Shown in pieces: positions 1 to 22,456 of a DNA stretch of 33,343 nucleotides. The translations under genes were made by a program, and so were the position numbers. Under the pieces are notes generated by a model, which saw only the letters and a program-made list of their open reading frames with translations, had not been told where the DNA came from and ran no database searches. Source of the DNA: Candidatus Sungbacteria bacterium RIFCSPLOWO2_01_FULL_54_21 (GTDB taxonomy: Bacteria > Patescibacteriota > Minisyncoccia > Sungbacterales > HO2-52-23); NCBI GenBank assembly GCA_001820725.1, contig MHQR01000014.1, forward strand, positions 1-33,343. The letters are read 5' to 3'. Numbering within the stretch: the stretch's first letter is position 1; each line of letters starts with the position of its first letter.

Positions 1-1524
1 CGCCTGCAACTGATGAAGCGTCTCCTCGCCCCCGACGGCTCAATTTATGTGCATCTTGACTGGCATGTCGGGCATTATGTAAAAGTGATGATGGATGAAG
101 TGTTTGGAAAAGAGAATTTTGTGAATGAAATTGTGTGGGAGTACCAAGGAGCGTGGTCTGAAACTGATAGATATTTTCCAAGACGCCACAACGCTATTTA
201 TTTATACGCGAGGAATCAGGAAAGGTATTTTTTTGATAGAACACACGAGGACGATATTCATGCCGGAACAAATTTTAACCGATGGTATGAATTTGTAGAA
301 AACAACAGAATTTATGCTCGACATGCTCCTTATCATGACGCAAGATTCAAAACCTATGTCGATAATTTCAAAAAGGAACATGGAAGAGAGGCACAGGGCG
401 ACGATATCATCATAGATTTCAGAGGGTCTGTGGTTGGGAGTGTTTGGTATATCAAGGTTGTTGATCCTAAAAGCCCAGAAAATGTTGGTTTTGGGACACA
501 AAAGCCATTACAGTTACTTGAGAGAATTATTGAATCATCGTGTCCAAAAGACGGATTAGTCGCAGACTTTTTTGGTGGCTCAAGTACATCACTCGTTGCA
601 GCAGAAAAATTAAATCGCCGTTGGCTTGGCTGCGAGCTCGGGAAAGTAGGAATACAAGTAACGCGCGGGCGGCTGGTGGAGCAAAAATCAAAGCCGTTTT
701 TGATTGAAAACATCGGCAATTATCAGCGCGAGATGATTTATCTGGGCGGGGCGCGGATTTACGAGATGCAGAAAATCATTTTGAAACTTTACGGCGCGGA
801 GCCGATGGCCAACCGCAAAGACTTGGGCGTGCGGAAAAATGAAGACGGGGTGTTGGAACTGGTCTATTGCGGTTATCCAGACAGAGCAGTCGCGGCGCAT
901 AAGGTGGAGGATTTGGCGACAGAAGCGCAGATGCTTGACGGTGCGGGGTATAAACGACTCGTGATTTTGGCGTGGGATTATGAATACAACTATGACGAGC
1001 TTTTACAGACGCGGATAAAAGCCGCGGGCAAAGATATAAAAACGGAAATTGTGAGTCGGCAGATTCCGCCGGACATCTATGAGCACTTGAGACAGGCAAA
1101 ATCAGCATCTGATGAGGATATTGAGCGACTCTCGGACAAAGTGAAGTTTTTGGAAAAGCCGTATTTGAAACTGAAAAAGCCGGAGGTGAAAGGAAGCTCG
1201 GTTACCATCGGCATTGAAAAATATGTGCTCTACGATTTTCCGCTCGGGAGCGGCAAGAAAGCGGACGAAGACCGCGAGGCATTACTGCATCTCGTCAAGG
1301 ATAATTTTGCTATTTTGATTGACTATTGGGCGGTGGATTGGGATTACGACGGGCTGACATTCAAAAGCCAGTGGCAGGATTTGCGCGGCTTGGGGCGGAA
1401 GACAAAAGTGGTAACGATGGAGAAAGAACATTCGTATGAAAAATCAGGAAAGCACACGATTGCCGTGCGCGTGGTTGATATTTTCGGCAACGACGCGACC
1501 GCGACGATGGAGATAAAAGTATGA
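1..1524 (+). CDS. Type III restriction-modification DNA methyltransferase (Mod), 5'-truncated by window edge
   Basis: Frame is open to base 1 (RLQLMKRLLAPDGSIYVHLDWHVGHYVK); motifs GTQKPLQLLERIIESSCPKDGLVADFFGGSSTSLVAAEKLNRRWLGCE; adjacent res gene. Confidence 0.88.
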   Translation, partial: RLQLMKRLLAPDGSIYVHLDWHVGHYVKVMMDEVFGKENFVNEIVWEYQGAWSETDRYFPRRHNAIYLYARNQERYFFDRTHEDDIHAGTNFNRWYEFVENNRIYARHAPYHDARFKTYVDNFKKEHGREAQGDDIIIDFRGSVVGSVWYIKVVDPKSPENVGFGTQKPLQLLERIIESSCPKDGLVADFFGGSSTSLVAAEKLNRRWLGCELGKVGIQVTRGRLVEQKSKPFLIENIGNYQREMIYLGGARIYEMQKIILKLYGAEPMANRKDLGVRKNEDGVLELVYCGYPDRAVAAHKVEDLATEAQMLDGAGYKRLVILAWDYEYNYDELLQTRIKAAGKDIKTEIVSRQIPPDIYEHLRQAKSASDEDIERLSDKVKFLEKPYLKLKKPEVKGSSVTIGIEKYVLYDFPLGSGKKADEDREALLHLVKDNFAILIDYWAVDWDYDGLTFKSQWQDLRGLGRKTKVVTMEKEHSYEKSGKHTIAVRVVDIFGNDATATMEIKV

Positions 1525-2984
1525 CAAAACCAGAATTAATAAAAAACATTCTCAATATTCCTTCCGAGTCTCGCACTTTGGAGTTTAAACGACTGGGAAG
1601 TAGGAACGAGAGCATAGATAGAGTGCTACAGTCCATTGTTGCAATGGCAAATACCGATGGGGGAACTTTGATTTTAGGAGTCGAAGATCCTCAAAAAACT
1701 ACTCTCAAAGGGCTTGATCGAATTTTTGGCATAGAAGAAAACCTAGTGTTTTATGATGAACTTGGAAAAGCCGTTAGGAAGATTTCACCCCCCATTTCAA
1801 GCATTTGGCCACCGGATATTGTTGAGGTTCCAAATAAGAATGTAAGGATTGGGCTTCTGGCTGTACCAAAAGTTAGTGATGGTTTCAGATCAATCGAGGG
1901 TCATGTGTATGTGCGTTTGGAACAAGGTAATAAGAGATTACTTCCCCAAGAGGTCGTCCATTTCGCCTATGTAAAAGGTTTCGAGCGCGCCGACAGAGAA
2001 TTGGTTGCTGTTGACTTTTCGCTTCTCAAAACAAATTTTTATGATGTTTGGCGTAAGAAGCGAGGAATTGCTGATGATCCTATCGCTAATGTTTTAGAAA
2101 AGACAGGACTGGCTCGAAAGGGTAAAGGAGGACAGATTTTGCCTACAAGGGCAGCGGTTCTTTTATTTGCGGAATTTCCTAATGATCTTTTGGATACTAA
2201 ATGCGCCGTTCGTATTTTTCAATATGAAGGCAATCTAGAGACCATCAAAGAAACACTGAATTTAATTGGAACGCCAAAAAATATAGTCGGGCCAGTGATC
2301 AAACAAATTACGGATGCACATGAGTATGTGTTGACTTTGCTTAGAACTGGTATCCGAGTACCATCAGGTTTTGTGACGACCTACCAGATCCCAGAGAGAG
2401 CAATCAAAGAAGCCATTACGAACACAGTTATACATCGCGATTATTACACCAAGCGCGATATTGAAGTTAGAATTTTTGAAGATCGCGTTGAGATTGAAAG
2501 CCCGGGCCTTCTTCCTCTTAATATCACTCCATCAAACATTGGAGTTGAAAGGGCGCACGGATACAGGAACGATCTGTTGGTAAAACATCTCCGTGAATTT
2601 CCGGATCCGCCAAATCTTGACCAAAATGAAGGGGTAAAAGCAATGCGCCAAACAATGATGATCGCCAATCTTTACCCTCCAGTTTTTTGGACATACCCTC
2701 GCTTACAGGATGCTGTTAGAGTGATATTTTTCAATGCGAAAGCCCCAAGTGAATGGGACAAAGTTTCCGATTTTTTGATCCGGAATAAATACATAAACAA
2801 TACTGAAGCCCGCGGGATTCTTCATGTGGAAGATACCGGAAAAGTGTCGAAACTTTTTAACCGATTGGTAAGGCAAGGATCGCTCACCAAAATCGTGCCT
2901 CGAACGGGCGCAAAGCGCAATGTGCGGTATAGGTTACCAACTGCCGATGAAAAAACTTTATTTACCCCTGACAAAAGTAAATAA
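1521..2984 (+). CDS. AlbA_2 (Schlafen-like) domain ATP-binding protein / putative transcriptional regulator
   Basis: N-terminal ESRTLEFKR...IVAMANTDGGTLILGVED (AlbA_2); AIKEAITNTVIHRDYY...IRIFEDRVEIESPG (HATPase_c_4-like). ATGA overlap with mod. Confidence 0.8.
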   Translation: MTKPELIKNILNIPSESRTLEFKRLGSRNESIDRVLQSIVAMANTDGGTLILGVEDPQKTTLKGLDRIFGIEENLVFYDELGKAVRKISPPISSIWPPDIVEVPNKNVRIGLLAVPKVSDGFRSIEGHVYVRLEQGNKRLLPQEVVHFAYVKGFERADRELVAVDFSLLKTNFYDVWRKKRGIADDPIANVLEKTGLARKGKGGQILPTRAAVLLFAEFPNDLLDTKCAVRIFQYEGNLETIKETLNLIGTPKNIVGPVIKQITDAHEYVLTLLRTGIRVPSGFVTTYQIPERAIKEAITNTVIHRDYYTKRDIEVRIFEDRVEIESPGLLPLNITPSNIGVERAHGYRNDLLVKHLREFPDPPNLDQNEGVKAMRQTMMIANLYPPVFWTYPRLQDAVRVIFFNAKAPSEWDKVSDFLIRNKYINNTEARGILHVEDTGKVSKLFNRLVRQGSLTKIVPRTGAKRNVRYRLPTADEKTLFTPDKSK

Positions 2985-3128
2985 CCACAAAATGGCGTTT
3001 TATGGGCATTTTGAAGGAGTTCATTTGCAAGGGGGGTTGAAAAGGGACATTCCGGAAGTCTCCTTTCCTCTTAAATACGGCACTTTCCGGCATACTCCAT
3101 TTGCAATAGGCCAATAAATCAAAATACC

Positions 3129-5972
3129 ATGGCAAAGAAAATCCAAAACAATCTGCTCAACGAACTGCCGCTTGCCATAGCGCTGGAGGGCGAGGTAAAG
3201 GCGTGGGCGGATCAGGGCTGGCAGGGCGTAACGCAGACAACCTACGAACTTTTGGCGTATTGGTTTAATCGCGGTGAGGAAACAGACGAGAGATTCCATA
3301 ACTGCCAGCGCTGCGCGGTGGAGACGATTATTTACTGCCACGAAGTTTTGGGGATTGAAACATTGAAGCAAGTGTTTGAAAGATTCGCGCCGGAAGCGCT
3401 GGCAGCAAGCGCGGCTCTTTCGGAAGAAGTGGAAAATTTACCGTTTGCGAAATACTGCCTTAAGATGGCAACCGGCACCGGGAAGACTTGGGTACTTGCC
3501 GCACTTTTAGTTTGGCAGTATTTCAACGCCTTAAACAATGAACAGTCGGGCAAATACTCCACGCACTTTTTACTCGTCGCACCCGGACATGAGGTATTGA
3601 ATCGTCTGCTGGATATGTTTTTGGGAAAGCACGACTCCAAAACCGGCAACCGCGACAAATCCAAATCGGATTTTCTGCGTCCGCTTTTTATGCCGGAGGG
3701 CGAGCGATTTCGCAGTCGCTTCCACTTGCAAGTCCTGGAGCCGGCGGACATCCGGCCCAACCTTACGCCCCCGGACGAGCCGTTCGTGTATATCACCAAC
3801 TGGCAGCAGTTTCGGCTGAACGAATCAAGCAACTTGTGGGATCAACTAACCGGCGCCGATGCGGAGGAACAGCCGCGTGGAGAAATCATTGCCGATTTTC
3901 TCTCCGAGCATCCGGATTTGATTATTTTCAACGACGAGGCGCACCATGTCCACGGCGCCAAAACCGCCAAAGGCGAGGAATTGGTCTGGCGGAAATTCTT
4001 GATTGCTCTGTATAACCGAATGGCGGAAAAGCACCGCGGCGAGAAAGGCGTATTTTTGCAAATTGATTTTTCCGCTACGCCGTTTTATGGAAGCGCCGAG
4101 AAAAAAGAGTATTTTCCGCATATCGTCTACGATTTTGATTTGGTGTCAGCGATGCGGACGATGCTTGTCAAGCAGATATTTTTGGAAGAGCGGCAAGCAA
4201 TGTCGGGCGAGAAAATGGATGACCTTGATGTGCGCGCCGAACGAGCCGAAGCCGACGAGGAACACCGCAGGGGGCAGGTTATTGGTGTTTCCGTGAGCCA
4301 AAAACTGCTTTTGGACATCGGCAGAAAAAAGATGGAGCAGATAGCCGCGGAATTTCGCGAAAAAGGACTGGATAAGAAACCTGTGCTTTTCGTGCTTGCG
4401 GAAAATACCGAAGTGGCGGATTTAGTTGCCGAGCATGTGGCGAATTTGACCGATGAACGGGGCAGAAATTATCGCAATCAGATTCTCGTAATCCACTCGG
4501 ACAAAAAAGGCGAGATGAGCGACAAGGATTGGGAAAAGTACCGCCAGCAGTTAGAAACATTGGACGAGTCGGAGGAAGTAAATCCGATTCGCGTGGTGGT
4601 AAGCGTTTTGATGTTGCGTGAGGGCTTTGACACGCAAAATGTGGCAGTGGTTGTGGTGTTGCGGAGCGCGAAGGCCGATCTACTTTTAGAGCAGATAGTC
4701 GGGCGCGGAGTGCGGCTGATGTTTCCGGAATATAAATATCCTGAACTTGCCGATTTGAAACGCGAAGCGCGGGAAGATGTGATGCGTAAACGCGCGCCGA
4801 AAAATTCTCTGGACTTTCTTTTTGTCGTTGAACACCCGAAGTTTCGGAGTTTTTACGAGGAACTACAAAAGCAGGGATATACTATCGGCATTGGCGACTC
4901 TTCCGGCACGGATGCGACCGGCGACCTGGTCCTGTCGGAAGCCACGCCAGGGAGAATCAAAAACTACGATCTTTTTTGGCCGATACAAGTATACGAACAA
5001 TCGGCGAAGTTTGATTTTTCCGCCATAGATATTGCGGGGCTTCCGAAGTACTCCATTCCATTTGAGATGCTCAAAAAACAACTTTCCCAAATCGCTATCA
5101 CGGAAACACACGCCGAAACAGGCGGAAAAATAAAAACATGGAAGCTGGACAATCAGTATTTTGATTACGCCCATTTCTTGCGACAAGCGACGATGGCGGT
5201 GGCTTCCGAGAAGGGCGCGCACATTCTCACCGGCAAAATGGCCGATATCACGGGAATTATTGACGAGTATGTCAGCAACTACTTATTTGGCGGCGAGATT
5301 GATTTTCAGAAGGCGGAAAATTATACGGTGCTCAACTACGCGCCGCTCTTTGATTTTATCGTCGGAAGCGTCAAGCGGGCGCTGTTTGACGGCTTGGGCG
5401 CGATTCAATACGAAGTGAAGGCCGGAAAGATCGGCACATTGAGCGATGTAAAAAAGATTTATGTGCGCGAGTCGCTTTCCGTGCCGGTGGAGCGGTGCAT
5501 CTATCCGCTTTCCGCGTATTCGCGCCGTGGAGAAGGATTTGAGAAAAAGTTTATGGAGGAAACTTTGGACAAGTCCGGCGAGGTGGAAGCGTTTGGCAAA
5601 ATCCAGCCCAAGAAACACCCGCTCAATATTTCTTATCGGGACAAGGATGGAATCAAGCGCGACTATTTTCCCGACTTTATCATCAAGACGAAAGATAAAA
5701 TGTATATCGTGGAAACGAAGGCAGAGGACGAGATGCAAAAAGCGGAGGGCAACGAAAAGAACCTGATTGTTTTGAAGGCGCGCGCGGCGGTGAGCTGGTG
5801 CAAAACGGCAAGCCAAGTGTCGCTGGCGAACCAGCCGCAGCAATGGGAGTATCTCATGCTTTCCGAAAAAACATTCAACGAAAATCGGCAATTGGGCTTT
5901 GATGCATTGATGAATTTTGCAAGATTGGAGACGACACGGTTTTTGTCGCGGGAATCAGGCAGGTTGCTCTAG
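3129..5972 (+). CDS. Type III restriction enzyme, Res subunit (helicase/nuclease)
   Basis: Walker A MATGTGKTW, DEAH-like NDEAHHVHG, REGFDTQNV...QIVGRGVR helicase motifs, C-terminal PDFIIKTKDKMYIVETKAE (PD-(D/E)xK). Confidence 0.9.
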   Translation: MAKKIQNNLLNELPLAIALEGEVKAWADQGWQGVTQTTYELLAYWFNRGEETDERFHNCQRCAVETIIYCHEVLGIETLKQVFERFAPEALAASAALSEEVENLPFAKYCLKMATGTGKTWVLAALLVWQYFNALNNEQSGKYSTHFLLVAPGHEVLNRLLDMFLGKHDSKTGNRDKSKSDFLRPLFMPEGERFRSRFHLQVLEPADIRPNLTPPDEPFVYITNWQQFRLNESSNLWDQLTGADAEEQPRGEIIADFLSEHPDLIIFNDEAHHVHGAKTAKGEELVWRKFLIALYNRMAEKHRGEKGVFLQIDFSATPFYGSAEKKEYFPHIVYDFDLVSAMRTMLVKQIFLEERQAMSGEKMDDLDVRAERAEADEEHRRGQVIGVSVSQKLLLDIGRKKMEQIAAEFREKGLDKKPVLFVLAENTEVADLVAEHVANLTDERGRNYRNQILVIHSDKKGEMSDKDWEKYRQQLETLDESEEVNPIRVVVSVLMLREGFDTQNVAVVVVLRSAKADLLLEQIVGRGVRLMFPEYKYPELADLKREAREDVMRKRAPKNSLDFLFVVEHPKFRSFYEELQKQGYTIGIGDSSGTDATGDLVLSEATPGRIKNYDLFWPIQVYEQSAKFDFSAIDIAGLPKYSIPFEMLKKQLSQIAITETHAETGGKIKTWKLDNQYFDYAHFLRQATMAVASEKGAHILTGKMADITGIIDEYVSNYLFGGEIDFQKAENYTVLNYAPLFDFIVGSVKRALFDGLGAIQYEVKAGKIGTLSDVKKIYVRESLSVPVERCIYPLSAYSRRGEGFEKKFMEETLDKSGEVEAFGKIQPKKHPLNISYRDKDGIKRDYFPDFIIKTKDKMYIVETKAEDEMQKAEGNEKNLIVLKARAAVSWCKTASQVSLANQPQQWEYLMLSEKTFNENRQLGFDALMNFARLETTRFLSRESGRLL

Positions 5973-5978
5973 AGAACT

Positions 5979-6878
5979 ATGAACTATCTTCTCTACGGGC
6001 CGGATACGTACCGGAGCCGGAAAAAATTACGGGAGATGATTGCGGGTTATGCGCCGCGCGTGCAGGCGGGGACGGTGGATGTTCTGCGCTTTGACGCGGC
6101 GGAGGATGATATGAGTGAGTTGCCCGCCGTAGTGCGCGGGGGATCGCTGTTCGGCGCGAAAAAACTCATCGTGCTGGAACGGCCGTTCACTGCGGCCACC
6201 CCGTTTGATATCACGCGCCGCGTGCTCGCGGAGACGCACGAAACAAAAGATAGCTTCGTGATCGTTTGGGACGCTCTACTGGATGTGGAAGGGAAGAAAC
6301 GGCTGAAGGAAGTGGAAAAGTATTTTAATAAGCGCGTGGAATTCACGCCGCTCGCGGGCGTACGCCTGCATCAATGGATAAAAAAAGAGGCTGCGGCGCG
6401 CGGCGTGGCGCTCTCTGCGGCAGATCGTGCGGCGCTCACGGCGAGAGACGGGGGCGATACATGGGGCATCGTCCAGGACATTGAGAAAAAAGCGCTCATG
6501 GCGGATAGCGGGGTGGCGGCGCCGTCCGCACCACCCTCTGTCTTTGATCTTGGCGATACTTTTTTTTATTCTCCCGTCGCCGCGCGGCGCATCCTGTTGT
6601 CCCTCATCCGTGCGGGAGAAGACGAAAAAAATATTTTCTGGTATCTTGCGGGGCACACGCGCACACTTCTTACGGTAAAATCATATCTTGAGCGCGGCAT
6701 ATCCGTACCCGCGAGCGCCCACATCCATCCCTTTGTGGTAAAAAAAGCGTCCCGAGTAGTCGGGATGCTTTCCGTGGGTGATATGACGCGCATGCTCGGG
6801 CGTTTTTTTGAAGAAGATTGGCGGATAAAGACGGGCGTGTCATCGGCGCAAGAGTCGCTCCTGCGCCTGCTCGGATAA
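5979..6878 (+). CDS. holA: DNA polymerase III subunit delta
   Basis: MNYLLYGPDTYRSRKKLREM..., length and C-terminal FFEEDWRIKTG pattern typical of HolA. Confidence 0.8.
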   Translation: MNYLLYGPDTYRSRKKLREMIAGYAPRVQAGTVDVLRFDAAEDDMSELPAVVRGGSLFGAKKLIVLERPFTAATPFDITRRVLAETHETKDSFVIVWDALLDVEGKKRLKEVEKYFNKRVEFTPLAGVRLHQWIKKEAAARGVALSAADRAALTARDGGDTWGIVQDIEKKALMADSGVAAPSAPPSVFDLGDTFFYSPVAARRILLSLIRAGEDEKNIFWYLAGHTRTLLTVKSYLERGISVPASAHIHPFVVKKASRVVGMLSVGDMTRMLGRFFEEDWRIKTGVSSAQESLLRLLG

Positions 6879-6880
6879 TC

Positions 6881-7150
6881 CTATTTATTCACTGACTTTC
6901 CGATAAATTTCGTCAGACGCGACTTGAGGCGGCCTGCCTTATTTTTCTTGATCGCGTGCGTCTTGGCGGCCTTGTCGAGCGCCTGATATGCGAGCACGAG
7001 CGCTTTTTTCGCGTCCTCGATCTTGCCATCGGATACGAATTTCCGCACGACCCGTACCGCATCCTTGTAGGCGTCTTTTTTGATGGTGTTGCGGATTTTG
7101 CGCCGCACGGACTGGCGGAGCGCTTTTTTTGCTGAAGTGGTGATCGGCAT
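6881..7150 (-). CDS. rpsT: 30S ribosomal protein S20
   Basis: MPITTSAKKALRQSVRRKIRNTIKKDAY...; internal Met of the listed ORF is the natural start. Confidence 0.9.
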   Translation of the reverse strand: MPITTSAKKALRQSVRRKIRNTIKKDAYKDAVRVVRKFVSDGKIEDAKKALVLAYQALDKAAKTHAIKKNKAGRLKSRLTKFIGKSVNK

Positions 7151-7255: not shown

Positions 7256-8224
7256 TCACGCCGCTTCTGCCAAACTTTCCGCGTGTGAATTGCCGCCGAG
7301 CGCGAGTTCAAGCAGTGCCATACGGATGGGGACGCTGTACTCGGTCTGCCGAAAGTAGTGCGCACGCGGGTCGCTATCGACTTCGTGATGTATCTCTTCA
7401 TTCCGGGGCAAGGGGTGCATGAGTATTGCATCCGGCTGCATGCGTTCCATCATCTTTGCGTCAATACAGTAGCGCCGCTCAATGTCTTCATATACCACTC
7501 TGCCATCCGCTTTTTCGTGCTGAGAGCGCGTCCAATAGATGACCTTTGATTCTGCGATCACTTCTTCAAGTACTTCGTGCTCGGTAAACGTGACGTGGTA
7601 CTTGTCGAGATACTCAAGCACGTCGCTTTTCATCCGCAGTTCGGGGGGCGAGACAAACATGATCTTCACGTCTTTGAATTTGGCAAGGAGGTACGCAAGA
7701 GAGCGGGCCGTCCTGCCGTTTGCAAGGTCTCCGCCGATGATGATGCTGAGGCCGTCAATAGCCCCGAACTTCTGATGGATGGTGCCTACGTCTAGTACTG
7801 CTTGTGTCGGGTGCTGGCCTTTACCGTCGCCTGCGTTGATGATGGGCACTCGGCTAACCGTTGCGGCGCGCTCGGCTGCGCCCTCTTCAGGGCGACGAAG
7901 AACAATCACATCGGGCCCCATAGTATTGAGGACTTTAATGTGGTCTTCTAAGCTCTCTCCGCGATTCCGATATTCGGAGGAGATTCTCCCGCCTCCTTGG
8001 AGCGGTGGCACGTCCATGCCCAATCGCAATCCTGCTACGCAAAATGACGCATGTGTCCTTACCGATTCCGTTTCGAAACTATTGAACAGCATTTTTTCGG
8101 AAAAGAGTTGGCGCATGCGATAGCGGCCGGAACTGCTTCTCCATAGCACCTCGAACTCATTGGCGCGACGAACCACTGCCTCCAATAACGGGCGGCTGAA
8201 CTGTTGCGATTTCAAAATGTGCAT
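7256..8224 (-). CDS. pyrB: Aspartate carbamoyltransferase catalytic subunit (variant active-site loop)
   Basis: NAGDGKGQHPTQAVLD, GDLANGRTARSL, HPLPRNEEIHHEVD, TRSQHEK; the carbamoyl-phosphate loop reads ESVRTH rather than PSTRTR. Confidence 0.85.
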   Translation of the reverse strand: MHILKSQQFSRPLLEAVVRRANEFEVLWRSSSGRYRMRQLFSEKMLFNSFETESVRTHASFCVAGLRLGMDVPPLQGGGRISSEYRNRGESLEDHIKVLNTMGPDVIVLRRPEEGAAERAATVSRVPIINAGDGKGQHPTQAVLDVGTIHQKFGAIDGLSIIIGGDLANGRTARSLAYLLAKFKDVKIMFVSPPELRMKSDVLEYLDKYHVTFTEHEVLEEVIAESKVIYWTRSQHEKADGRVVYEDIERRYCIDAKMMERMQPDAILMHPLPRNEEIHHEVDSDPRAHYFRQTEYSVPIRMALLELALGGNSHAESLAEAA

Positions 8225-8293: not shown

Positions 8294-8380
8294 CTAGTCC
8301 GGCAATACGCGGTATTGTTTTATCCGGTCGCGCAGGCGCGCGGCCAGCTCAAAGTCCATGTGTTTCGCGGCTTTTTTCAT
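8294..8380 (-). pseudogene. Duplicated 3' fragment of uvrB encoding a 28-aa UVR-motif peptide
   Basis: MKKAAKHMDFELAARLRDRIKQYRVLPD*; nearly all of it lies in the 79-bp segment identical to the real uvrB C-terminus. Confidence 0.75.
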
Positions 8381-8394
8381 TTCGCGCTCAAGCG
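8316..8394. repeat. 79-bp perfect direct repeat, copy 1 (uvrB 3' end)
   Basis: Identical to 9274-9352 base for base. Confidence 0.97.
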
Positions 8395-8676
8395 CTACCG
8401 CCGCAGAAGGTTTTTATATGCTTTGTCGCGGCGATCAATATCGTAAAGCGTGAGTTCTCTTTTACTGCTATCCACCCAAAAGAAAATCCGCCAGTCCCCG
8501 GCCCGCATCTTATGTAGGCCGCGCAGATCAGGCGGCAAATTTGTCATGGGCGAGCCGATGATTTCGGGATGCGCCGCACGGTATTCTATTTTCTCGGCGA
8601 TGCGACGTTGGTCATTGCGAGGCAATCTGGCGAATACTTTCTCAAAAGATACAAGTGGCCGGATACTATAGGCCAT
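8395..8676 (-). CDS. RelE/ParE-superfamily toxin
   Basis: SFEKVFARLPRNDQRRIAEKIEY...LRGLHKMRAGDWRIFFWVDSSKRELTLYDIDRRDKAYK: RelE-like core and C-terminus. Confidence 0.8.
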   Translation of the reverse strand: MAYSIRPLVSFEKVFARLPRNDQRRIAEKIEYRAAHPEIIGSPMTNLPPDLRGLHKMRAGDWRIFFWVDSSKRELTLYDIDRRDKAYKNLLRR

Positions 8677-8872
8677 ACCTTGTTTTCAGCAATTTCCACT
8701 GCCCAGTATCGCCGTGGAGGTGTTCGGCGCGCAGACGACGTATCTTTCTTATGAATGCGGGTTTTGAGACAAGGAGCGCATTCTCCAAAGCATCTTCGGC
8801 CGCAATAAACTGGCGTCCAGCTGCCAAGATATCTTGAAGCGCTTTTTTAGGTATCTGAATTGTGGTTGACAT
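8666..8872 (-). CDS. Putative antitoxin partner of the RelE-like toxin
   Basis: 68-aa ORF overlapping the toxin start by 11 bp; MSTTIQIPKKALQDILAAGRQFIAAEDALENAL; promoter immediately upstream. Confidence 0.65.
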   Translation of the reverse strand: MSTTIQIPKKALQDILAAGRQFIAAEDALENALLVSKPAFIRKIRRLRAEHLHGDTGQWKLLKTRYGL

Positions 8873-8878
8873 AGTTCA

Positions 8879-8907
8879 AAGATAGAAGAAAATTGTCGCG
8901 TTGTCAA
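8879..8907 (-). promoter_or_regulatory. Sigma70-type promoter for the TA operon
   Basis: Minus strand TTGACA-N17-TATCTT, 6 nt before the antitoxin ATG. Confidence 0.75.
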
Positions 8908-9061
8908 TAATATGGGCATACTTGCATACGAAAAGAAAAATACCAGCAGGTCCGTATTAAATGATGGTACAAAACATATCCGCTCCTTTTCAAAGAACAA
9001 GTATCCTCAAGGAACATTGGCCATCGGGGGCTGTCCTCGGTGCCTCAATATCCCTGAAAAT

Positions 9062-9096
9062 AAATAAACCCCTCGCTTGTGGCGAGGGGTTTATTT
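9062..9096. terminator. Bidirectional intrinsic terminator
   Basis: 15-bp perfect stem AAATAAACCCCTCGC-TTGTG-GCGAGGGGTTTATTT. Confidence 0.85.
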
Positions 9097-9230
9097 GATA
9101 GCAGAATTCGTGGTTATCTATGCCTACATATCAAATATGCGCCTTCGCCAGAAGGGTTCATCATCATAGCCATCATCATGTTTCTCTGGGCTCGTATATC
9201 CATAGGTTATCTCATGATAGCGGGGGCGGA

Positions 9231-11300
9231 TTATTTGTCAAGCGACGGCTTGAGAGAAGCGTCACCTGTCAACTGTTTTATCCGGTCGCGCAGGCGCGCG
9301 GCCAGCTCAAAGTCCATGTGTTTCGCGGCTTTTTTCATTTCGCGCTCAAGCGATTTCACTATGTCGGCAGTATGACCCTCCGGCAAAGGGAGAGGGTCGT
9401 CCTTTTTCGCTGTTTCTAATATAGAATCGCGAATTGTCTTTTGAATCTGCAGGGGCGTGATGCCGTACTCTTTATTATAGGTACGCTGAATGTTCCTGCG
9501 CCGGTCGGTTTCCCGCATCGCGGCATGCATGGAACGCGTCACAGTGTCTCCGTACAACACAACCGTGCCGCTGGTGTGGCGCGCGGCGCGCCCGATAATC
9601 TGAAGCAGAGTTGTCTCATTGCGCAAAAACCCTTCTTTGTCCGCGTCGAGGATGGCGATGAAGGAAACCTCGGGAAGGTCCAGGCCTTCGCGCAGGAGGT
9701 TGATGCCAACGATCACGTCGTGCTCGCCTTGGCGCAGTTTTTTCAAAATGCCCGGGCGCTCAAGCGTCTTGATGTCCGCGTGCAGATATTCCGCATTGAT
9801 GCCTGCCTCGGTCAGATATTCGGCAATGTCTTCGGCAAGCCGCTTGGTGAGAGCCAGCACGAGTGAGCGCTCGCCCCGTTTGCTCCGTGCTTTTATTTCC
9901 CTGATAATGTCCTGGACTTGATTTCTTGTCGGACGCACTTCAATCTCCGGATCCAGAATACCCGTGGGGCGGATGACTTGTTGGACAATAAACGAGGTAG
10001 AAGCGGGTAGGTTGTAGTTTGTAGGATCTTGGTTGCGGCTTTTCTCCAACTCATATATCGCAGGCGTGGCCGATACATAGATCACTTGGCTGGTGCGCTG
10101 GTTGAATTCGGTGAACGTAAGCGGGCGGTTGTCTACGGCAGAGGGAAGCCGAAAACCATAATTCACAAGCACATCTTTGCGCGCGCGGTCGCCGCGCTCC
10201 ATGCCGCGTATCTGCGGCAGGGTTGCGTGCGATTCGTCAACACATATCAAAAAATCATTACCGTAGGCATAGCGGAAATAATCAACGAGCGTGTGCGGCG
10301 GCGTGCCTGCCTCACGGAAATCCAATTGGCGCGAATAATTTTCAATGCCGTTTACGTAGCCGGTCGCGCGCAACATTTCCATGTCATATTCGGTGCGCTG
10401 TTTGATGCGCGCCGCTTCCAATACTTTGTCCTGCCGTTTGAACAAGGCCAACTGCTCTGCCAGCTCGCCTTTGATATTGGCAATCGCCACATCAAGCTTG
10501 TCCTGCGGGGTCACGAAATGCTTGGCTGGGAAAAGGCGCACGGATGAGAGCTTGTATGCTGTAGCTTGTAGGTTGTAGGACTTGACGGAGCGGCGGTCAA
10601 TGGCAACGACTTTGTTTTTTTCAAAAGCGATGGAAATGATTTCTTCTCCAGACGGCACGTGTATTTCTACGGTATTTTCGCGCGTGCGGAAGTGTCCTTG
10701 CCGCGGGTCAACCGGGTTGCGGGTGTATCGCAAAGCAATCAATCGTGCCATCAGCGCTTTCTGGCCCAACGGCTGGCCCACGCGCACGTTCATTGAGATG
10801 GCGGCATATGCTTCCGGACTGCCCACGCCGTAGATACACGACACGGACGCGACAATGATTGTGTCTTTGCGCGTGAGGAGGGAAGCCGTAGACGCATGCC
10901 GCAAGCCGTCGATCATTTCATTGATCTTGGCGTCCTTTTCAATATACGTGTCTGTCTGGGGGATGTAGGCCTCGGGCTGATAGTAATCATAGTAAGAAAC
11001 AAAGTAGTGCACGGCGTTGTCGGGAAAAAATTCACTGAATTCTTGATAAAGCTGGCCTGCGAGTGTTTTGTTGTGGGAAATGACGAGCGTCGGTTTCTGG
11101 ATTTTTTCAATGACATTGGCCATAGTAAACGTCTTGCCCGATCCCGTGACGCCCAACAGCGTCTGGTGCGTTACGCCCGCGTCCAGATTTTTTGTGAGCG
11201 CAGTAATAGCCGCCGGCTGGTCGCCAGTGGGGGAGAACGGGCTTTCCAGCCGGAATCTCTGCGTGTCGTTTGACGGAATCATCCTGGCATGGTATCCCAT
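9231..11300 (-). CDS. uvrB: Excinuclease ABC subunit B (start could be the internal Met at 11282)
   Basis: GVTGSGKTFTMANVI, YYDYYQPEAYIPQTDTYIEKD, VGINLLREGLDLPEVS, ILDADKEGFLRNETTLLQIIGRAARH, C-terminal UVR motif. Confidence 0.95.
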   Translation of the reverse strand: MGYHARMIPSNDTQRFRLESPFSPTGDQPAAITALTKNLDAGVTHQTLLGVTGSGKTFTMANVIEKIQKPTLVISHNKTLAGQLYQEFSEFFPDNAVHYFVSYYDYYQPEAYIPQTDTYIEKDAKINEMIDGLRHASTASLLTRKDTIIVASVSCIYGVGSPEAYAAISMNVRVGQPLGQKALMARLIALRYTRNPVDPRQGHFRTRENTVEIHVPSGEEIISIAFEKNKVVAIDRRSVKSYNLQATAYKLSSVRLFPAKHFVTPQDKLDVAIANIKGELAEQLALFKRQDKVLEAARIKQRTEYDMEMLRATGYVNGIENYSRQLDFREAGTPPHTLVDYFRYAYGNDFLICVDESHATLPQIRGMERGDRARKDVLVNYGFRLPSAVDNRPLTFTEFNQRTSQVIYVSATPAIYELEKSRNQDPTNYNLPASTSFIVQQVIRPTGILDPEIEVRPTRNQVQDIIREIKARSKRGERSLVLALTKRLAEDIAEYLTEAGINAEYLHADIKTLERPGILKKLRQGEHDVIVGINLLREGLDLPEVSFIAILDADKEGFLRNETTLLQIIGRAARHTSGTVVLYGDTVTRSMHAAMRETDRRRNIQRTYNKEYGITPLQIQKTIRDSILETAKKDDPLPLPEGHTADIVKSLEREMKKAAKHMDFELAARLRDRIKQLTGDASLKPSLDK
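9274..9352. repeat. 79-bp perfect direct repeat, copy 2 (inside uvrB)
   Basis: Identical to 8316-8394. Confidence 0.97.
10008..10026 (-). repeat. Heptanucleotide repeat inside uvrB (locus B)
   Basis: Minus strand T-CCTACAA-ACTACAA-CCTA, read as DPTNYNLPA. Confidence 0.6.
10549..10581 (-). repeat. Heptanucleotide repeat inside uvrB (locus A)
   Basis: Minus strand GT-CCTACAA-CCTACAA-GCTACAG-CATACAA-GCT, read as SYNLQATAYKL. Confidence 0.8.
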
Positions 11301-21870: not shown

Positions 21871-22137
21871 ATGGCACGAGAAGTAGAAAACATGAGCATA
21901 TCGCTTCCTAAAGAATTAAAGGAGCGAGTCAAGCAGCGGGTACGCGAAGATCATTATGGCACCCCGAGCGACTATATGCGAAGTTTAGTCCGCGAGGATC
22001 TTCGTCGCCGCGATCAGGAGCGGCTCGAACAGGCGCTCATAAAAGGGCTGGATTCCGGACGCGGCATGACCATCACCTCAAAAGGGGATTGGAAAAAGTT
22101 TTGGCACAAGAGCGTGGTAAAGAAGGGTAGAAAATAA
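21871..22137 (+). CDS. ParD-like ribbon-helix-helix antitoxin
   Basis: MSISLPKELKERVKQRVREDHYGTPSDYMRSLVREDL. Confidence 0.85.
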   Translation: MAREVENMSISLPKELKERVKQRVREDHYGTPSDYMRSLVREDLRRRDQERLEQALIKGLDSGRGMTITSKGDWKKFWHKSVVKKGRK

Positions 22138-22147
22138 GCCAAGCGTC

Positions 22148-22456
22148 ATGCATAGAAAACTTTTGTTTCTCCATCTTTCGGAGAATGATGCGCGGGAGAT
22201 TGCAGCATACATAGCTGACGATAATCCGACAGCCGCACAGCGTTTCCGCGCGGCATTTGGAGAGACCACTGAGCTTTTATTGCGTATGCCGCATATCGGC
22301 AGCCTGCGGGTTTCTGGCAAACTAGCGTTGGAAGATATACGAGTGGTTCCCGTGAAAGATTTTGAGCGATACTTCATATTTTACCGACCCATTGATGAAG
22401 ACATCGAGATTGTCCGAGTATTGCACGGCGCGCGCGATTACGCCTCACCTTTTTGA
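22148..22456 (+). CDS. ParE-like toxin
   Basis: LSENDAREIAAYIADDNPTAAQRFRAAF...MPHIGSLR...FERYFIFYRPIDEDIEIVRVLHGARD. Confidence 0.87.
   Translation: MHRKLLFLHLSENDAREIAAYIADDNPTAAQRFRAAFGETTELLLRMPHIGSLRVSGKLALEDIRVVPVKDFERYFIFYRPIDEDIEIVRVLHGARDYASPF

What the first reader, a model, noticed from the sequence alone, without database searches (positions are those of the whole stretch)
8294..9352. 79-bp perfect duplication of the uvrB 3' end brackets a TA cassette: possible integration into the end of uvrB
Bases 8316-8394 and 9274-9352 are identical over 79 bp. Copy 2 is the UVR-motif coding end of uvrB. Copy 1 lies 958 bp away, directly beyond the toxin stop codon (the stop abuts the repeat edge), and stays open to a different tail (IKQYRVLPD* versus IKQLTGDASLKPSLDK*). 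A perfect 6+3+6 inverted repeat CAATAC-GCG-GTATTG (8303-8317) sits at the outer edge of copy 1. The layout matches insertion of a roughly 0.96-kb unit (new uvrB tail, terminator, antitoxin, toxin) into the old uvrB 3' end, with the gene end regenerated and the displaced end left behind. Use of a uvrB 3' end by a recombinase-free TA cassette would be unusual. Mechanism is inference; the repeat itself is directly seen.
Basis: partly seen in the sequence, partly recalled or inferred. Interest (0 to 1): 0.78.

Follow-up and report, generated by a model that had tools for sequence, protein, structure and literature searches.

The report
Toxin-antitoxin insertion leaves displaced gene tail
In a tiny groundwater bacterium a toxin-antitoxin gene pair has been inserted at the end of the DNA-repair gene uvrB together with a fresh copy of that gene's end, leaving the old end stranded downstream; the same layout recurs at other genes and in related bacteria, which points to a recombinase-free way for such gene pairs to spread.

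Summary
In detail: a 79-bp perfect repeat of the uvrB 3' end brackets a RelE/ParE-like toxin-antitoxin (TA) pair. The insertion reading holds in outline. The window's sister genome (G002) has uvrB-pyrB-rpsT with no TA and no second copy. Displaced uvrB ends occur in five of the order's genomes, next to the same TA family in two (G000, G008) and behind a GIY-YIG nuclease in one (G021).

The same architecture recurs in the window's own genome: hppA/RelB-YafQ, a cation ATPase/AbiEii, and, mirrored at a 5' end, tktN/AbiEii-like. In the sister genome, hppA carries MazEF. In most diverged copies the two ends differ mainly at synonymous codons (e.g. 9 of 9 changed codons at G002 hppA). So the two ends diverged in different genomes and were then joined; local duplication plus decay does not explain that.

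Best account: DNA from a relative recombined at a conserved gene end, bringing TA plus a foreign gene end, and the native end was displaced. No recombinase or shared att site was found. This is a TA version of "insertion with long target duplication" (known for restriction-modification systems) and of endonuclease-borne C-terminal replacement in fungal mitochondria. The recombination step is inferred.

The parts
9231..11300 (-). uvrB, complete, ending in the proximal (live) 3' end, tail IKQLTGDASLKPSLDK*
   Evidence: NCBIfam NF003673 E=1e-278, TIGR00631
9274..9352 (-). proximal copy of the 79-bp repeat (UVR-motif coding end of uvrB)
   Evidence: the repeat finder, 100% over 79 bp
9214..9241 (-). 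promoter-like site TTGACA-16-TATCAT in the uvrB tail; in relatives with uvrB-rpsT adjacency a similar site lies just before rpsT
   Evidence: consensus match only
9062..9096 (-). strong terminator-like hairpin (15-bp perfect arms, 5-nt loop) between uvrB and the TA operon
   Evidence: (I2)
8879..8907 (-). promoter-like site TTGACA-17-TATCTT just upstream of the antitoxin
8666..8872 (-). antitoxin gene, 68 aa, overlaps the toxin start by 11 bp; no Pfam/NCBIfam match; homologues precede the toxin in G006, G011, G015, G021
8395..8676 (-). toxin gene, 93 aa, RelE/ParE superfamily (weak)
   Evidence: PF05016 E=0.012, below cut-off; PDB 9g12 'Toxin RelE' E=1.4e-5; 66-68% identical homologues next to uvrB
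8316..8394 (-). displaced copy of the uvrB 3' end, abutting the toxin stop codon
8294..8315 (-). displaced tail ...YRVLPD*; fits the Y-R/Q tail type of relatives' UvrB (G006, G007, G012, G014, G022)
8303..8317 (.).
7256..8224 (-). pyrB; directly follows uvrB in the sister genome G002
   Evidence: TIGR00670; L031
6881..7189 (-). rpsT; ancestral neighbour of uvrB in most relatives
   Evidence: PF01649

Best explanation
A TA pair from a relative was added to the uvrB-pyrB junction by recombination at the conserved end of uvrB. One side of the event was homologous: within the last ~80 bp of uvrB the sequence passes into a donor-type uvrB tail (LTGDASLKPSLDK plus promoter), followed by terminator, antitoxin and toxin. 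The other side was an illegitimate join at the toxin stop, back to a point 79 bp upstream in the recipient's own uvrB end. That 79 bp is therefore present twice, and the native tail (YRVLPD) is stranded before pyrB. uvrB stays intact with a new tail, pyrB keeps its original upstream sequence, and TA addiction may help fix the insert. The same kind of event happened repeatedly in this order, at different genes and with different TA families. Shown: the structure, its recurrence, empty sites in relatives, and heterologous (synonymously diverged) gene ends in most other cases. Inferred: the donor, the entry route (natural transformation is plausible), the template-switch or one-sided crossover step, and TA activity.
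For: Empty site in the sister genome G002 (tree support 0.994): uvrB-pyrB-rpsT, no TA; uvrB-rpsT directly adjacent in G003, G005, G006, G007, G009. The same TA family is at the uvrB locus in 6 of 23 genomes of the order, patchily and in lineages whose nearest held relatives mostly lack it; in a sample of 384 genomes of the class these six are the only close members. Displaced uvrB ends occur in 5 of 23 genomes of the order, none seen in the listed matches outside the order. G008 has toxin, displaced uvrB end, rpsT. Same layout in the window's genome: hppA / RelB_DinJ-YafQ / displaced hppA end; cation ATPase / DUF6922-AbiEii / displaced end; mirrored tktN 5' end / AbiEii-like. Sister G002: hppA / MazEF / displaced hppA end; hppA-tig directly adjacent in G007 and G001. 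Live and displaced ends differ mainly at synonymous codons: G008 6 syn/1 non, G012 13/3, G021 11/2, tktN 7/0, G002 hppA 9/0, all rejecting neutral decay. Some pairs are mosaic, near-identical inside and diverged toward the gene end (hppA, mutM, atpG, and the window itself). E. coli K-12 control: none in 250 kb.
Against: In the window the two copies are identical, so the foreign-tail step rests on the tails alone plus analogy with the other loci. No donor with this tail and TA in the same species was found. Why the displaced fragments are always short (~45-100 bp) is not explained. In G012 and G001 displaced uvrB ends have no gene cargo, and in G003 and G011 the cargo is not a TA. secF (G003) and atpG (G011) do not reject neutral change on their own, and G001 only weakly (P=0.016). 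The E. coli control is small, and the outgroup survey gave one possible tail copy (G077).
Confidence: 0.66

Rival explanations
1. Nuclease-driven tail replacement: a GIY-YIG (or other) endonuclease cuts the uvrB 3' end; repair from a donor copies in a cleavage-resistant tail plus neighbouring cargo. In the window the nuclease acted in trans or has been lost.
For: G021 has uvrB / GIY-YIG (PF01541 E=1.3e-15) / displaced uvrB end at this very locus. The sister genome G002 has a LAGLIDADG intein in UvrB. The arrangement equals mORF-driven C-terminal replacement in Glomus/Allomyces mtDNA (PMC3630166). The five uvrB displaced ends start within ~33 bp of each other (my reading).
Against: No nuclease in the window unit or at hppA, ATPase, tktN, atpG, secF or mutM; several unrelated target genes are used.
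Confidence: 0.15
2. The TA is ancestral next to uvrB and the 79-bp copy arose by simple local duplication to a place behind the toxin.
For: The TA family is old at this locus in the order and its divergence resembles that of uvrB; in G011, G015 and G021 TA precedes rpsT with no displaced end directly behind it.
Against: The sister genome lacks TA and has uvrB-pyrB-rpsT. The displaced tail continues in frame into a uvrB-type ending. In G008 the equivalent copy differs 6 syn/1 non, incompatible with duplication and neutral decay. Tail-only copies carrying TA recur at other genes, downstream of 3' ends.
Confidence: 0.1
3. Small circular cassette [gene end + TA] that integrates by a single crossover (Campbell type, RecA) into the homologous gene end and can excise between the repeats.
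For: Direct repeats of the target gene end flank TA with no recombinase; integration by homology would restrict each TA family to one locus, as observed.
Against: Mosaic pairs (identity inside, divergence only toward the gene end) are not expected from a simple crossover between two uniformly diverged ends; no circle seen.
Confidence: 0.12
4. Site-specific recombinase element (tyrosine or serine integrase) using gene 3' ends as attB.
For: 3'-end duplication resembles att sites of integrative elements at gene ends (general knowledge).
Against: No integrase in any unit; the repeats are each target gene's own end with no common core; a mirrored 5'-end case (tktN); junction palindromes not enriched.
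Confidence: 0.03
5. Assembly artefact of a metagenome-assembled genome.
For: Draft assembly (37 contigs); perfect repeat.
Against: 79 bp is below usual read length (general knowledge); near-identical architecture with non-identical repeats at other loci and in other genomes.
Confidence: 0.03

Closest known systems
Insertion with long target duplication of restriction-modification systems (Nobusato et al. 2000; [quoted passage not shown]
   Same: Addiction-type module inserted without a transposase, flanked by ~50-100 bp direct repeats of the target, single copy in relatives
   Different: Cargo is TA, not R-M; repeats are gene ends that keep the target gene intact; in most loci outside the window the two ends are heterologous (synonymously diverged), so not a plain target duplication
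mORF-driven C-terminal replacement in fungal mitochondria (Allomyces atp6; Glomus atp6, atp9, cox2, nad3; PMC3630166)
   Same: Insert brings a foreign gene end that is fused to the resident gene; the native end is displaced ~1 kb downstream; differences between ends largely synonymous
   Different: There the insert encodes a homing endonuclease; here only G021 uvrB does (GIY-YIG), the window and five other units carry TA
Homology-facilitated illegitimate recombination during natural transformation (e.g. PMC3240628)
   Same: One homologous end, one illegitimate end, no mobile-element enzyme
   Different: Not demonstrated in these bacteria; the recurrent short duplications at gene ends are a specific signature that I did not find described in the papers searched
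Type II toxin-antitoxin systems, RelE/ParE superfamily
   Same: Antitoxin-toxin order with overlapping genes, own promoter-like site, weak RelE/ParE similarity
   Different: Antitoxin matches no described family; the pair was found only beside uvrB in this order

Membership tests
Insertion with long target duplication | Insert flanked by long (~100 bp) direct repeats, single copy in a related genome | tested here: met
   79-bp repeats; sister G002 has one uvrB end followed by pyrB
Insertion with long target duplication | Addiction-module cargo without transposase or terminal inverted repeats | tested here: met
   TA pair only; no shared ends or significant palindromes
Insertion with long target duplication | Repeats are both copies of the recipient's own target sequence | tested here: inconclusive
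   Window copies identical but tails differ; G008, G012, G021, tktN and G002 hppA pairs are heterologous
Endonuclease-borne C-terminal replacement (mORF) | Live gene end replaced by one carried on the insert, native end displaced downstream | tested here: met
   Both tails are in-frame uvrB-type endings; synonymous divergence at sister loci
Endonuclease-borne C-terminal replacement (mORF) | Insert encodes a homing endonuclease | tested here: not met
   None in the window unit; met only at G021 uvrB (GIY-YIG)
Integrase-driven element at a gene 3' end | Integrase gene and common att core | tested here: not met
   No integrase in any unit; each unit has its own target's end; mirrored 5' case
Type II TA, RelE/ParE superfamily | Toxin matches the family profile | tested here: inconclusive
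   PF05016 E=0.012 under cut-off; RelE structure hit E=1.4e-5
Type II TA, RelE/ParE superfamily | Toxin inhibits growth and antitoxin neutralises it | not testable with these tools
   Needs expression assay

The most novel reading that the evidence does not exclude
Patescibacteria of this order harbour a class of minimal, recombinase-free mobile units: TA pairs tied to particular conserved gene junctions (uvrB-rpsT, hppA-tig and others) that spread between species by uptake and recombination at the flanking gene end, each arrival leaving a displaced gene-end scar.
Probability: 0.38. Interest if true: 0.8.

Novelty: new variant of a known kind. Interest (0 to 1): 0.63.

Why it matters
How chromosomal TA pairs move when no mobile element carries them is an open question. 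Here the scars can be read: displaced gene ends show where a unit landed, and which synonymous changes came with it. That gives a searchable signature for counting TA gain and donor relationships in ultra-small bacteria, which are hard to culture. It also suggests that addiction modules, R-M systems and homing nucleases may all exploit the same gene-end replacement route.

Tried and rejected
Junction palindromes as a recombinase signature: not enriched. A viral, plasmid or phage source of the toxin: no match. An RNA element between uvrB and TA: no Rfam match, though the fold is stable (z=-3.1). The 71-bp repeat at window 23288/24149 is an in-frame repeat inside a large surface-type protein, not a gene-end event. 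Other near repeats in the genome are CRISPR repeats, a dispersed hairpin, repeats within one gene, or unresolved repeats. L127 (outgroup) repeats belong to a highly repetitive region and were left out of the tail count.

Full report
Observation. The 79-bp repeat is exact and at the stated coordinates and has no other copy in the 767-kb genome. uvrB is complete. The TA pair lies between the copies; the toxin is a weak RelE/ParE match and the antitoxin has no described family. The toxin stop abuts copy 1. The noted inverted repeat exists, but palindromes at such junctions are not significant.

Empty site. The genome belongs to a Sungbacteria-like Patescibacteria lineage: two relatives found here are titled Candidatus Sungiibacteriota. 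A tree of six neighbouring proteins puts G002 as sister (0.994). G002 has uvrB-pyrB-rpsT with no TA. Several relatives have uvrB directly next to rpsT. The window therefore carries an extra ~0.96 kb relative to its sister.

Recurrence at uvrB. The toxin family occurs at the uvrB locus in six of 23 genomes of the order (just upstream of uvrB in one, G006); a wider sample of 384 class genomes found no other close members. A second uvrB end was found downstream of uvrB in five of the 23. G008 repeats the window layout: toxin, displaced uvrB end, rpsT, although its toxin gene is broken near a contig end. G021 has a GIY-YIG nuclease between the live and displaced ends, and the TA further on. G012 and G001 have displaced ends without gene cargo.

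Heterologous ends. Where the two ends differ, the changes are mainly synonymous: G008 6/1, G012 13/3, G021 11/2, G001 5/4 (syn/non codons), against a neutral expectation of mainly non-synonymous change. A displaced end that decayed after local duplication should not look like this. Both ends diverged while coding, that is, in different genomes, and were then joined. In the window the 79 bp are identical, but both tails read as uvrB-type endings: IKQLT..., as in G003, G005 and G011, and IKQYR..., as in G006, G007, G012, G014 and G022.

Same genome, other genes. A survey of ~630 kb of this genome for copies of gene ends within 4 kb and a repeat check around its TA loci gave three more cases. hppA carries RelB_DinJ plus YafQ/RelE, with a displaced hppA end behind the toxin. 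A cation ATPase carries DUF6922 plus AbiEii and a displaced end. tktN shows the mirror image: a displaced 5' end, an AbiEii-like nucleotidyltransferase, then the intact gene, with 7 of 7 changed codons synonymous. All four convincing cases in this genome carry TA or TA-like pairs. Five other RelE/ParE-type toxins found there have no spanning repeat, so this is not the only way TA pairs sit in the genome.

Relatives. The sister G002 has hppA, MazEF, then a displaced hppA end whose nine changed codons are all synonymous. hppA is directly next to tig in G007 and G001, and a MazE/MazF pair lies between hppA and tig also in G000 and, with a partial mazF match, in G008. Thus TA families are tied to junctions (uvrB-rpsT, hppA-tig) and come and go between genera. 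Non-TA cases also exist: mutM with a SET-domain protein and another ORF, atpG, and secF with an inverted-repeat insert. E. coli K-12 gave none in 250 kb, a small control.

Mechanism. Several pairs are mosaic: near-identical on the side inside the gene and diverged toward the gene end (hppA 1 difference in 45 nt then 6 in 26; atpG none in 48 then several in 12; mutM similar; window 79 identical and then different tails). This fits a crossover or template switch from the recipient's gene end into a donor gene end, copying of donor tail plus cargo, and an illegitimate return a short distance upstream. Entry by natural transformation is plausible because comEC and pili are reported for Patescibacteria (PMC12455944). 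A nuclease-initiated version is a live rival because of G021 and because of the UvrB intein in G002.

Comparison. R-M systems are known to insert with long target duplications of the order of 100 bp (PMC3874152; PMC1643837), and endonuclease ORFs in fungal mitochondria replace gene C-termini and displace the native end with synonymous divergence (PMC3630166). The present case combines features of both with TA as cargo. I found no report of TA pairs doing this in the library searched, which lacks most subscription papers.

Noticed in passing
window 9056-9241 (-): Between uvrB and the TA operon: a near-consensus promoter in the uvrB tail, a short Met-rich ORF (MDIRAQRNMMMAMMMNPSGEG...), a strong terminator and a sequence complementary to one terminator arm (9129-9144 vs 9085-9100); the RNA fold is stable (z=-3.1). 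Could be a leader or small RNA, or a left-over of the rpsT promoter region.
   Followed up: partly
L077 (G000:C18) 9208-11165: hppA locus: RelB_DinJ/YafQ pair followed by a displaced hppA end, then an ORF of 186 aa and a MazEF pair before tig; two TA pairs stacked at one junction.
   Followed up: yes
L158 (G002), hppA downstream: MazEF pair between hppA and a displaced hppA 3' end with only synonymous differences.
   Followed up: yes
L031 (G002) 4476-6092: Intein with LAGLIDADG domain inserted in UvrB near the P-loop; one in-frame TGA in the stretch.
   Followed up: partly
L107 (G000:C28) 6283-6815: CRISPR-like repeats ending AATTTCTACTTTTGTAGAT (Cas12a-like) downstream of genes that look like cas1/cas2; unusual in a reduced Patescibacteria genome.
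   Followed up: no
L051 (G019) 1127-3419: mutM 3' end duplicated around a 253-aa ORF of no family and a SET-domain protein.
   Followed up: partly
L029 (G001) 4342-4470: Displaced uvrB end interrupted by a palindromic insert (CCCGGTAGTA...TACTACCGGG).
   Followed up: no
L030 (G006) 3395-3869: The same TA family lies upstream of uvrB, its toxin stop ~25 bp from the uvrB start, instead of downstream.
   Followed up: partly
L119 6092-6150 / 7039-7098 and L057 after both ATPase ends: Dispersed hairpin TTTGAAGTTCCACTTCAAA recurring in the genome.
   Followed up: no
window 21871-22456 (+): Another TA-like pair (ParD-like 88 aa, ParE 102 aa) without flanking gene-end repeats.
   Followed up: partly
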